A stretch of 36,681 bases of DNA from Halalkalicoccus subterraneus (GTDB lineage: Archaea; Halobacteriota; Halobacteria; Halobacteriales; Halalkalicoccaceae). This document shows positions 7,741 to 11,155 of the stretch, one piece after another. Below the pieces are notes generated by a model, which saw only the letters and a list, made by a program, of their open reading frames with translations, had not been told where the DNA came from and made no database searches. Numbering within the stretch: the first letter of the stretch is position 1; the number at the start of each line of letters is the position of its first letter. A program made the position numbers and the translations under genes. The stretch is from the NCBI RefSeq assembly GCF_003697815.1, contig NZ_RDQG01000042.1, forward strand, positions 1-36,681, read 5' to 3'.

Positions 7741-7905
7741 CTACTCCCACTCGGCGTCCGCAAGCGGTTCTGCGACGACGCCTCCTGTTGAACGAGTGCG
7801 AGCGTGGGCCGTACAGACGACGTGCTCGTCGGCCCACGAAATGTGGCATCGGACCGATCCAGAACGTTGACAGCCGTCTTCGGTACAGGTTCGGATATCA
7901 CTCAT
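7741..7905 (-). CDS. Small Cys/His-rich protein, probable metal binder, coupled to tmcA
   Basis: 54 residues from the ATG at 7905, which overlaps the tmcA stop in ATGAGTGA. A longer in-frame version from 7926 is possible, but the ATGAGTGA overlap favours 7905. Putative ligands are C7, C12, C20-H21, C31 and H34, spaced like a small zinc-binding module; the C-terminal third is acidic and free of Cys. I know no named family. Tight coupling to tmcA suggests a role linked to tRNA acetylation, but that is inference from context alone. Confidence 0.65.
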   Translation of the reverse strand: MSDIRTCTEDGCQRSGSVRCHISWADEHVVCTAHARTRSTGGVVAEPLADAEWE

Positions 7906-10330
7906 CGACGTAGCGGCGCTTCTCATCGAGCGCCGCCTCCGATCCGTACTCGTCGAGCAAGGGCTTGAAACACTCGCCGAGGGTACGCATGCACATCCGC
8001 ATCGAAACGAACCCCAACCCCGTTGTAACCTCGTTCCACGGATGGGCCTGCAGGACCTTCCGCACGAGCAGGCGTTCCTGACGATCGGTCAGATCGACCT
8101 CACCGTCGATCAGGTGGGCCACCACGAGCGGGCGAAAGCTCCCCGGCGCGACGTCGAAGGCTCCGGAGCCGTGGGCCGCGCTCGCGACGTGGATCCAGTC
8201 ACGCTCCGAGAGCCCGGGGTCGACGCCGGTATCTATCGAGGCGAGCGCCGCCCGCACCACATCCGGTTCGGCGTCAGCGAGGGGATCCGAGAGCACGCTT
8301 GCGATCCGGTCGGCGAACCAGCGAGCGTGTCGATCGTGAAGGCGCTCTCCAGGAACGCTCGTCGGCGAGAGCATGACCGCCGAGTACTCGCCGCTGGCGT
8401 CGTTTCGCGTCGTCGAGAGGTGAACGGTCGAGAAACCGTTACCGGCCCAAAACGAGAGGAGTCCGGGCGTCGCGCCGTACCCGACCCCGAGCCAGTCCGC
8501 GTGTGAGGCGAACTCCGCGCGGACCTCCGAGAGCAGTCGAGAGCCGAGTCCGCGGGAGCGAACCGCGTCGTGGGTCGCGATCCGGAGCACCCGCTGGCCG
8601 ACAGGCTTTCCGGCGCCCTCGTCGCGCAGTTGGCTCGTCAGCAGGTCGGGGATCATGTTTCCGCGGATCCGCTCGCCGTCGTAGAGATCCTCCCGGAGTT
8701 CGGGATCGAGGCCGCCCTCGCGGGCCAGCAGCGCGACGCTTACGACGTGGCCGTCGTGGGTCAGCGCGCGCACCGTGAGGTTGGGCGCGTCGAGCAGGCG
8801 CGCGAGATCGTTCGGCTCGGTCCGGTAGTGGGCCGCGACGAGCAGGCCGAAGACCTCTCGGAGCAAGTTCTCGTCGGAAACGAGGTCGGCCCGCGAGAGG
8901 CGACGGTACTCGACGGTTTCAGTGGTCGCATCCTCGACCAACTGGTCGACCGGGGGACGCGCGTCGAGCAACAGGGCACGAAAGGTCCAGATCTCGACGG
9001 GATCGCCCGCGGCGTAGCGAATGGGATCCGCCATCGTCATCGAACTGACCTCGTGATCGCTTTCGTTCAGGCGGTCACGAAACCGCACCGAGAAGCCCCG
9101 GCCTGCGCCCTCGTAGCCGTGGATCGTGGTGACGAACGCCGTTCGATCGACCTCGAGACAGCGTTCGAGCACGCGTACCGGGAGCGCAGCAGCCTCGTCG
9201 ACGATCAGGACGTCCGGGTCCTCGGTCCCGATTTCGCGCGGGCGTGCAAATCGGACCCGGCCGCCAGCGGCGGTTTCGAGACGGGACTCCTCGTCACTTT
9301 CGAGCGAACCTTCAAGCAGTTCACGGGCACGCGCGAACACCTCGACGGCGTTGCGGGCGTCGGGCGCGGTCACGAGCACGTCCGCACCCTCGCTTGCAAG
9401 CGCACCCGCGACGAGCCCGGCCGCACTCGACTTCCCCCGGCCGCGATCGGCCTCGACCACGACTGCCTGCTCGTCCTCTCGAAGGGCTTCAAGCGCGGCG
9501 AGCGTCGCGACCTGATCGTCCGTCAGGCAGGCCTCGTAGGCCGCCCGCGGGAAGTCGTACTCATCGGGAATTCCTATCGGATCGACTCCGAATCGCGGGG
9601 CGGGGTGGGTCAATCCGTCGCTCTCGAGACCTCCCGAATCGACATCGACGACCCCGATTCCGGGGTGCGCGCGCAGAAGGGAGACCAGCCGCCCGCGAAA
9701 CCGGCCGGTCACCTCTTCGACCCCGAACGGCGGGACCGCGAGCGAGCTATCGAAGCCGTCGCGCCGGTCGGGCCAGGCGTCGAGGTCAGGTGCGAGCACG
9801 ACCAATAGACCGCCGCCGTCGACGACGCCGCTCAGCCGTCCGAGGGCGTTCGGCTCGAAGCGCTCGTAGGCATCGTAGGCGACGATTTGGCGGGTGGTTC
9901 CGAGCAGTTCGGCGGTTCGTTTCGGGTCGACCTGCTCGCAGGGGAGGGTCTCGCGATCTCCCACAAGGACGGTGTCGGTGACCGCGACCGGAAGTGCATC
10001 GAGGACCTTTCGGAGGGCGTCGAACCCGCGCTCGCGCCCGCCAGTGAGCACCAGCAGTCGGCGCTCGTTCGTCTCCCGTGCTTCTGCGAGGAGGGCGGTG
10101 GCGATCGCGGTTGGGTCCATACTCCGGATTGGCGGTGGCGCCGTATGGCCGTTCTCCCTCGTCGTTACCGGGGTCCACGTAGCGTTCGACGGCGAAGACC
10201 AGCCGAGGAACAGGTAGACCCACCACGCCATGAGCACGATACCCGCGACGAAGACCGACAGGAGGACGGTTCCGACGAAGAGGTTGTACGCAAAGACCGC
10301 AGCGACGACGCCCACCGAAACGACGGCCAT
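7898..10330 (-). CDS. tmcA: tRNA(Met) cytidine acetyltransferase TmcA with N-terminal membrane extension
   Basis: TmcA/Kre33/NAT10-family enzyme that makes N4-acetylcytidine in RNA using acetyl-CoA and ATP. Order from the ATG at 10330: two hydrophobic helices (about 3-44), a ~25-residue linker, then a TmcA start at Met71 (codon at 10118-10120). The helicase module has the Walker A loop D-R-G-R-G-K-S (Lys300) and Walker B V-D-E-A-A-A-L-P. The GNAT acetyltransferase has R-S-R-G-L-G-S-R-L-L, and a C-terminal tRNA-binding tail follows. Family members normally begin where Met71 is, which would give 740 residues. I list the longer form because an A/T-rich box at 10368-10376 places transcription start just before 10330 and no stop separates the parts. 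If translation begins at 10120, the membrane part is not made. Confidence 0.85.
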   Translation of the reverse strand: MAVVSVGVVAAVFAYNLFVGTVLLSVFVAGIVLMAWWVYLFLGWSSPSNATWTPVTTRENGHTAPPPIRSMDPTAIATALLAEARETNERRLLVLTGGRERGFDALRKVLDALPVAVTDTVLVGDRETLPCEQVDPKRTAELLGTTRQIVAYDAYERFEPNALGRLSGVVDGGGLLVVLAPDLDAWPDRRDGFDSSLAVPPFGVEEVTGRFRGRLVSLLRAHPGIGVVDVDSGGLESDGLTHPAPRFGVDPIGIPDEYDFPRAAYEACLTDDQVATLAALEALREDEQAVVVEADRGRGKSSAAGLVAGALASEGADVLVTAPDARNAVEVFARARELLEGSLESDEESRLETAAGGRVRFARPREIGTEDPDVLIVDEAAALPVRVLERCLEVDRTAFVTTIHGYEGAGRGFSVRFRDRLNESDHEVSSMTMADPIRYAAGDPVEIWTFRALLLDARPPVDQLVEDATTETVEYRRLSRADLVSDENLLREVFGLLVAAHYRTEPNDLARLLDAPNLTVRALTHDGHVVSVALLAREGGLDPELREDLYDGERIRGNMIPDLLTSQLRDEGAGKPVGQRVLRIATHDAVRSRGLGSRLLSEVRAEFASHADWLGVGYGATPGLLSFWAGNGFSTVHLSTTRNDASGEYSAVMLSPTSVPGERLHDRHARWFADRIASVLSDPLADAEPDVVRAALASIDTGVDPGLSERDWIHVASAAHGSGAFDVAPGSFRPLVVAHLIDGEVDLTDRQERLLVRKVLQAHPWNEVTTGLGFVSMRMCMRTLGECFKPLLDEYGSEAALDEKRRYVDE
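10121..10330 (-). other. Two-helix membrane segment in frame with TmcA
   Basis: These 70 codons encode two hydrophobic helices, V-V-S-V-G-V-V-A-A-V-F-A-Y-N and T-V-L-L-S-V-F-V-A-G-I-V-L-M-A, then W-W-V-Y-L-F-L-G-W and a polar Pro/Thr-rich linker. The pattern resembles a free-standing small membrane protein that has become continuous with tmcA. Because the frame is open into tmcA, any ribosome starting at 10330 would make a fusion of 810 residues. A sequencing or assembly indel that removed a stop codon is the main alternative. Confidence 0.55.
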
Positions 10331-10443: not shown

Positions 10444-10559
10444 TTTTATGGGGTGGTGCGCTACTCCGGTGTACAGCCTGCGCGGGGTCATGACGCTCCT
10501 AGCCGTTTAGGATCTATGCAGGCAGGGGAGCGAGAGCCCGCGTGCAGGAGGAGATTACA
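10444..10559 (+). promoter_or_regulatory. Promoter and folded leader of the rpl7ae operon
   Basis: TTTTAT at 10444-10449 predicts a start near 10472 and a leader of ~88 nt with a strong ribosome binding site, AGGAGGAG (10546-10553). The leader folds on paper into one long element: CCTGC (10477-10481) with GCAGG (10544-10548), GCGGG (10482-10486) with CCCGC (10537-10541), an asymmetric internal loop GTCATGA/AGAG, then CGCTCC (10494-10499) with GGAGCG (10527-10532). The last 3' arm overlaps the ribosome binding site. Two other GCAGG copies (10518-10522, 10522-10526) and a TCCTA/TAGGA stem (10497-10501 with 10508-10512) could compete, so a switch is possible. Confidence 0.55.
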
Positions 10560-10922
10560 ATGCCAGTATACGTCAACTTCGACGTCCCGGCGGACCTTCA
10601 AGAGGACGCCCTCGAGGCCCTCGAGGTCGCCCGGGACACAGGTTCGGTAAAGAAAGGTACCAACGAAACGACCAAAGCGATCGAGCGGGGCAACGCCTCG
10701 CTCGTCGTCATCGCCGAGGACGTCCAGCCCGAGGAGATCGTGCTGCACCTCCCGGAGCTCGCCGACGAGAAGGGTATCCCCTTCGTCTTCGTCGAGACAC
10801 AGGACGACGTCGGTCACGCTGCCGGCCTCGAGGTCGGCAGCGCCGCCGCCGCCATCACGGACGCCGGCGACGCCGAGGACGACGTCGAGGACATCGGTGG
10901 GAAGGTCGAGGAGCTCCGCTGA
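10560..10922 (+). CDS. rpl7ae: Ribosomal protein L7Ae / kink-turn binding protein
   Basis: 120-residue archaeal L7Ae, a kink-turn RNA binder found in the large ribosomal subunit, box C/D and H/ACA guide RNPs and RNase P. The family core is clear: [14 protein letters not shown] (36-49), then [13 protein letters not shown] and I-P-F-V-F-V. The ATG at 10560 is preferred over an in-frame ATG at 10542 because a strong ribosome binding site ends 6 nt before it. It heads the operon with rps28e, rpl24e and ndk; spacing to rps28e is 8 nt. The upstream folded leader suggests control by an RNA-binding protein, plausibly L7Ae itself. Confidence 0.94.
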
Positions 10923-10930
10923 GATAACCA

Positions 10931-11155
10931 ATGAGCGCAGAAGAATCAGCCAACGACTCCACGTCCGCCGAGGTCATCGAGGTCGTCGGCAAGACGGGGA
11001 TGCACGGCGAGGCCATGCAGGTCAAATGCCGCATCCAGGAGGGCGAGAATCAGGGACGCATCATCACGCGAAACGTCCTGGGCCCGGTCCGCGAGGGCGA
11101 CGTCCTGCAGCTTCGCGAGACCGCCCGGGAGGCCGACTCCATCGGGGGTCAATAA
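10931..11155 (+). CDS. rps28e: Ribosomal protein S28e
   Basis: 74-residue small-subunit protein with the S28e fold. Signatures: [13 protein letters not shown], then [21 protein letters not shown] and L-R-E-T-A-R-E-A. Archaeal length is normal; only the first ~12 acidic, Ser-rich residues are an extension. The stop TAA shares its last base with the ATG of rpl24e, so the two are translationally coupled. Confidence 0.94.

What the first reader, a model, noticed from the sequence alone, without database searches (positions are those of the whole stretch)
10471..10559. Long folded leader on the L7Ae operon whose stem reaches the ribosome binding site
Seen: nested stems CCTGC/GCAGG, GCGGG/CCCGC and CGCTCC/GGAGCG, with an asymmetric purine-rich internal loop (GTCATGA opposite AGAG), and a last 3' arm that overlaps AGGAGGAG. 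Two extra GCAGG copies and a TCCTA/TAGGA stem offer alternatives, so the site could switch. Known: L7Ae binds kink-turns, and self-control through a kink-turn in its own leader has been reported in another archaeon (from memory). Inference: L7Ae, or another factor, masks the ribosome binding site of the whole L7Ae-S28e-L24e-NDK operon. I could not fit the loop to a canonical kink-turn with tandem GA pairs, so the binding partner is open.
Basis: partly seen in the sequence, partly recalled or inferred. Interest (0 to 1): 0.65.

Follow-up and report, generated by a model that had tools for sequence, protein, structure and literature searches.

The report
Haloarchaeal L7Ae autoregulatory kink-turn mRNA leader
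The start of this messenger RNA folds into a conserved hairpin with a kink-turn, the shape that the encoded ribosomal protein L7Ae recognises, right beside the ribosome landing site, so the protein very probably shuts off its own production; nearly all salt-loving archaea examined carry the same device.

Summary
The l7ae leader (predicted start ~10473 to ATG 10560) folds into one long hairpin: a 12-bp C-helix (10477-10488/10536-10548), an asymmetric loop and an NC-helix. It is an order-wide RNA element: a covariance model finds it in 279 of 293 genomes of the order (253 of 255 good ones), nearly always once and, wherever checked, directly upstream of l7ae; no convincing copy exists elsewhere in the phylum. 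Helix pairs show 42 compensatory changes on the tree, against 1-5 for slid controls. The b-strand UGA is invariant (139/139); the n-strand is GA in 126/139. This genus lost one base of the usual UUGAUGA, which hides the motif. Deep families of the order carry short textbook k-turns at the same place. L7Ae autorepression through a leader k-turn is published for other archaea; in Haloferax the upstream strand was noticed but left out of the tested fragment. The haloarchaeal form differs in its long, stable helices ending just before a mostly unpaired Shine-Dalgarno core. The UCCUA/UAGGA switch is not supported. No binding or translation was tested. New variant of a known kind.

The parts
10444..10449 (+). 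TATA box TTTTAT of the l7ae promoter (predicted)
   Evidence: sequence; first T of the box lies 28-31 nt upstream of the conserved (T)ACA in 121 of 135 leaders with a box
10472..10475 (+). conserved TACA, predicted transcription start at about A10473
   Evidence: conserved in nearly all relatives; spacing to TATA; no transcript data
10477..10488 (+). C-helix 5' strand CCUGCGCGGGGU
   Evidence: fold; compensatory changes at pairs of this helix
10489..10491 (+). k-turn three-base bulge C-A-U (L1-L3)
   Evidence: alignment with relatives UUGAUGA / UCAUGA / UUGUGA / CUGUGA
10492..10493 (+). k-turn b-strand G1b-A2b, part of the UGA found in 139 of 139 leaders
10494..10499 (+). NC-helix 5' strand CGCUCC (continues with GCC 10502-10504)
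   Evidence: fold; covariation
10510..10512 (+). conserved GGA box in the apical loop, function unknown
   Evidence: GGA within 12 nt of the NC strand in 136 of 137 leaders; not explained by the alternative hairpin
10521..10532 (+). NC-helix 3' strand GGC..GGAGCG (10521-10523 and 10527-10532)
   Evidence: fold; covariation
10533..10533 (+). extra A on the n-strand between NC-helix and tandem GA
   Evidence: alignment; most relatives have one extra base here, a minority none
10534..10535 (+). k-turn n-strand G2n-A1n
   Evidence: GA in 126 of 139 leaders, AA in 12
10536..10548 (+). C-helix 3' strand GCCC(G)CGUGCAGG, G10540 bulged
   Evidence: fold; covariation; ends 9-17 nt before the start codon in the leaders measured
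10546..10553 (+). Shine-Dalgarno stretch AGGAGGAG; first three bases in the C-helix, the rest mostly unpaired
   Evidence: sequence; unpaired probabilities
10560..10922 (+). l7ae (eL8) coding sequence, carries the GTNETTK k-turn-binding stretch
   Evidence: Pfam PF01248 E 4.9e-26; best PDB match haloarchaeal L7Ae 1s72_F
10931..11155 (+). rps28e
   Evidence: Pfam PF01200
11155..11547 (+). rpl24e
   Evidence: Pfam PF01246
11544..12005 (+). ndk
   Evidence: Pfam PF00334

Best explanation
The 10473-10559 leader is the haloarchaeal form of the archaeal l7ae autoregulatory leader. Its transcript forms a long hairpin with a kink-turn between a C-helix and an NC-helix. When L7Ae exceeds its rRNA and sRNA targets it binds the k-turn, kinks and locks the hairpin, and so holds a rigid protein-bound helix against the Shine-Dalgarno core, blocking 30S entry and lowering translation of l7ae and, by coupling, of rps28e-rpl24e-ndk. 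Shown here: the conserved structure, covariation, k-turn signature, narrow range of distance to the start codon, one copy per genome, association with l7ae. Inferred: L7Ae binding, steric blocking, and effects on downstream genes.
For: Fold better than all shuffles. Same leader at 109 of 110 l7ae loci first collected; the exception, L110, is truncated. A covariance model hits 279 of 293 genomes of the order, 253 of 255 good ones, nearly always once, with comparable coordinates ending at the l7ae start; own genome one copy, E 1.9e-22; nothing convincing outside the order. 14 of 22 pairs change on both sides, 0 of 500 shuffles reach this; 42 compensatory branch events versus 1-5 when slid; the two highest-scoring column pairs of a tree-aware covariation test are C-helix pairs. 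UGA b-strand 139/139, n-strand GA 126/139. Deep families carry short textbook k-turns at the same place, e.g. CGU[AAU]GA-CGCGC-GGGA-GCGCG-GA-ACG just before AGGUG, and one genome has CGGGGU[GGU]GA-GGAGCCACCG...CGGUGGCUCC-GA-GCCCG. L7Ae autorepression through a leader k-turn is published (PMC5539422, PMC6298567). The window L7Ae keeps the GTNETTK stretch.
Against: No binding, structure-probing or translation data for this leader. In most of the order the n-strand has one base more than a standard k-turn, the commonest b-strand allows a four-base loop or a three-base bulge beside an unpaired U, and 12 of 139 leaders have AA instead of GA. As a bare pattern a relaxed k-turn is common by chance in this GC-rich window, 41 hits on one strand, so the case rests on conservation. 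The published mechanism needs an RNA that is unstructured without protein (PMC6298567); this one is predicted to be stable alone. The downstream genes were not tested.
Confidence: 0.82

Rival explanations
1. The leader binds a different product of the operon or another ribosomal protein (S28e, L24e) and L7Ae is not the ligand.
For: The operon encodes S28e and L24e too; ribosomal leaders can bind a non-first gene product (PMC7247131).
Against: The invariant UGA/GA signature between two helices is an L7Ae-type k-turn, deep families have textbook k-turns at the same place, and l7ae is the first gene.
Confidence: 0.07
2. A conserved stem-loop that only stabilises the mRNA or fixes a basal translation rate, without protein control.
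For: High predicted stability without ligand; the Shine-Dalgarno core stays mostly unpaired.
Against: Does not explain invariant UGA and near-invariant GA bases flanked by covarying helices.
Confidence: 0.07
3. The leader is released as a box C/D-like small RNA (UGAUGA with CUGA in some genera) and acts in trans.
For: Some leaders read UGAUGA and CUGA; small RNAs HM9_V and HM10_V were listed next to rpl7AE in Haloferax mediterranei (PMC5852579).
Against: No second C'/D' pair or guide was sought or seen; the D-like box is not conserved; the helix end keeps a narrow distance range to the start codon.
Confidence: 0.03

Closest known systems
Archaeal l7ae 5'-UTR k-turn (Sulfolobus acidocaldarius, Daume et al. 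2017, PMC5539422)
   Same: k-turn in the leader of l7ae near the Shine-Dalgarno site; autorepression proposed for most archaea; an upstream Kt-b strand in Haloferax volcanii is mentioned in the legend of Fig. 5
   Different: that study found high leader conservation only in Sulfolobales and tested about 50 bp of the H. volcanii upstream region; in the Haloferax leaders seen here the b-strand lies about 100 nt upstream, so such a fragment would lack it; long covarying helices not described in the main text
Archaeoglobus fulgidus l7ae leader-L7Ae complex (Huang et al. 2019, PMC6298567, PDB 6HCT)
   Same: GAU bulge then tandem G-A pairs, as in the common haloarchaeal UUGAUGA; ribosome binding site beside the k-turn
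   Different: there the stem has few pairs and is unstructured without L7Ae; here a 12-pair C-helix and a longer NC-helix are predicted to be stable alone
Box C/D k-turn (RUGAUGA / CUGA)
   Same: UGAUGA and, in some genera, CUGA strands
   Different: part of an mRNA leader; D-like box not conserved; no guide sequence established
Eckert and Weinberg 2020 archaeal ribosomal leaders (PMC7247131)
   Same: covarying structured leaders of ribosomal protein genes, including S15 leaders in Halobacteria
   Different: no l7ae leader among the 20 new motifs of Table 1

Membership tests
Archaeal l7ae autoregulatory k-turn leader | lies in the 5' leader of l7ae, next to the Shine-Dalgarno site | tested here: met
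Archaeal l7ae autoregulatory k-turn leader | bulge followed by tandem G-A pairs between two helices | tested here: met
   window CAU-GA / GA; UGA 139/139 and GA 126/139; covarying helices
Archaeal l7ae autoregulatory k-turn leader | binds L7Ae and represses translation | not testable with these tools
   needs binding and reporter assays
Archaeal l7ae autoregulatory k-turn leader | unstructured without L7Ae, folds on binding | tested here: inconclusive
   predicted stable alone, but a folding energy does not settle behaviour in the cell
Standard k-turn | exactly three-base bulge and NC-helix directly on the tandem G-A pairs | tested here: inconclusive
   three-base bulge in the window, but one extra n-strand base; strict form found in L113, L117, L120, L121, L129
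Rfam RNA families | match above a gathering score | tested here: not met
   only a tRNA in the window

The most novel reading that the evidence does not exclude
Haloarchaeal l7ae leaders work by a different route from the published fold-on-binding model: the hairpin is already formed, the Shine-Dalgarno core stays open beside it, and L7Ae represses by locking and kinking a preformed helix against the 30S entry site, with the conserved apical GGA box as a second functional element.
Probability: 0.4. Interest if true: 0.55.

Novelty: new variant of a known kind. Interest (0 to 1): 0.42.

Why it matters
Few cis-regulatory RNAs are known in archaea, and no Rfam family matched this one. It turns a remark about one species into a defined, covarying element in nearly a whole order that includes genetically tractable Haloferax. 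It also poses a testable question: how can a k-turn switch work if the RNA is already folded?

Tried and rejected
Alternative hairpin UCCU/AGGA as a switch: not more stable than loop shuffles, 1 of 75 with p < 0.05. Mimicry of 23S rRNA: leader and 23S align no better than shuffled leaders; the window genome itself gave no 23S match, so relatives were used. More copies in the own genome: second hit E 0.47, judged chance. Copies elsewhere in the phylum: the three weak hits, and a second weak hit in one order member, appear to lie in protein-coding DNA. A single-sequence k-turn pattern as proof: too common by chance. Covariation over all column pairs has limited power: apart from two C-helix pairs, no helix pair reaches E < 0.05 in that test, and one unpaired column pair (10-30) did at E 0.03, so the structure-level counts carry the argument. 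A mapped transcript start for a haloarchaeal l7ae: not found in the main text of PMC4983044; supplements could not be opened.

Full report
Setting. The window carries a four-gene cluster: L7Ae (10560), S28e, L24e and nucleoside diphosphate kinase, all confirmed by Pfam, reading away from a divergent tmcA gene. The 230 nt between them hold a TATA box (10444-10449) and the leader in question. No Rfam family matches.

Observation. The leader folds at -41.5 kcal/mol; none of 200 dinucleotide shuffles does as well. Only the first three bases of AGGAGGAG are in the helix; the following core is predicted mostly open, except G10551.

Comparative evidence. l7ae loci were collected from relatives of the genome and from public genomes. 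At 109 of 110 loci the same leader could be read; the remaining one, L110, is cut by the contig end. An alignment of 34 diverse leaders gave the same two-helix architecture by RNAalifold, which was not given a structure. With the proposed structure, 14 of 22 pairs have changes on both sides and 57 cells are compensatory; none of 500 shuffles reaches this, and the six slid versions give 4-11 pairs and 7-23 cells. On a tree of 139 leaders, the 21 helix pairs carry 42 compensatory branch events; sliding the partner by 1-3 columns gives 1-5, and other column pairs average 0.13 each. In an R-scape-like test that I wrote, with substitutions shuffled along the tree, the two best column pairs of the whole alignment are C-helix pairs, with no null score as high. 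share one MAFFT alignment and one leader-based tree, and the null is my own implementation, so those E-values are approximate.

Distribution. A covariance model finds the element in 279 of 293 genomes of the order and in 253 of 255 that are at least 90% complete and at most 5% contaminated, nearly always once (G111 and G138 list two matches, and the second in G111 is weak). Listed coordinates that can be compared end at the l7ae start. In the phylum sample no genome outside the order has a convincing match. The own genome has one copy.

The kink-turn. Aligning relatives resolves the loop. Most leaders read GGGG-UUGAUGA-N-GCUCC on the 5' side and GGAGC-NN-GA-GCCC on the 3' side. The UGA is present in 139 of 139 leaders; the n-strand is GA in 126, AA in 12. 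The genus of the window reads UCAUGA, one base shorter, and this gives a three-base bulge CAU after the U10488-G10536 pair, then G10492A10493 against G10534A10535. Leaders with CUGUGA replace that U-G pair by C-G. In most leaders, this one included, the n-strand has one base more than a standard k-turn; Haloferax-like leaders lack it. Deep families of the same order, which the model misses, carry short textbook k-turns in front of l7ae, for example CGU[AAU]GA-CGCGC-GGGA-GCGCG-GA-ACG-AGGUG in L113. L129, which the model does find, weakly, has a strict k-turn with a ten-pair NC-helix of different sequence. Position and strand order are the same, so I read the long form as an elaboration of the short one; homology is inferred, not tested. 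A relaxed k-turn pattern alone is not significant in this GC-rich DNA (41 hits on one strand); conservation is what carries the claim.

Mechanism. In the 139 leaders measured the C-helix ends 9-17 nt before the start codon, with the Shine-Dalgarno core at or just after its end. This fits blocking of 30S entry by an abutting, L7Ae-locked helix better than pairing of the whole Shine-Dalgarno sequence. Published work shows that L7Ae represses its own mRNA through a leader k-turn in Sulfolobus (PMC5539422), and that the A. fulgidus leader is unstructured until L7Ae binds (PMC6298567). The haloarchaeal leader is predicted to be stable alone, so either the cell or co-transcriptional folding keeps it open, or repression works by locking a preformed helix. 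My data do not decide.

What was known for haloarchaea. Daume et al. tested about 50 bp upstream of H. volcanii l7ae and noted in a figure legend that a Kt-b strand lies further upstream. In the Haloferax leaders seen here the b-strand lies about 100 nt upstream of the start codon, so a 50-bp construct would miss it. I did not see the H. volcanii sequence itself, nor the supplement of that paper. My literature search covers only open-licence papers held by the tool.

Switching. The UCCUA/UAGGA stem proposed as an alternative is not more stable than expected. Yet a GGA lies within 12 nt of the NC 5' strand in 136 of 137 leaders. Its role is open.

Context. In H. volcanii 72% of protein-coding transcripts are leaderless (PMC4983044), so a conserved leader of roughly 90 to 180 nt with a Shine-Dalgarno sequence on a ribosomal protein gene is itself unusual.

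Noticed in passing
window 10508-10512 and loop of relatives: A GGA (AGGA or GGGA) box in the apical loop is nearly invariant (136 of 137 leaders) although the loop around it varies; the local alternative hairpin does not explain it.
   Followed up: partly
L016, L095, L130, L131, L132, L140, L148, L155: A subset of leaders, several from family f13, has AA instead of GA on the n-strand (A-A in place of the second G-A pair) while keeping the helices.
   Followed up: no
L113, L114, L117, L120, L121: Deep families f10 and f12 of the order have short (about 45-60 nt) k-turn hairpins with tetraloops before l7ae instead of the long leader; L114 did not pass the strict pattern.
   Followed up: partly
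window 7898-10330, minus strand: Divergent neighbour is tmcA, the tRNA(Met) cytidine acetyltransferase (Pfam TmcA_N, NAT10_TcmA_helicase), sharing the intergenic region with the l7ae promoter.
   Followed up: no
Haloferax mediterranei, next to HFX_2748 (rpl7AE): Predicted small RNAs HM9_V and HM10_V lie in the intergenic region beside rpl7AE (PMC5852579); they may be leader fragments.
   Followed up: no
own genome G000: No 23S rRNA match was found in the assembly that holds the window, though it is rated 95% complete.
   Followed up: no
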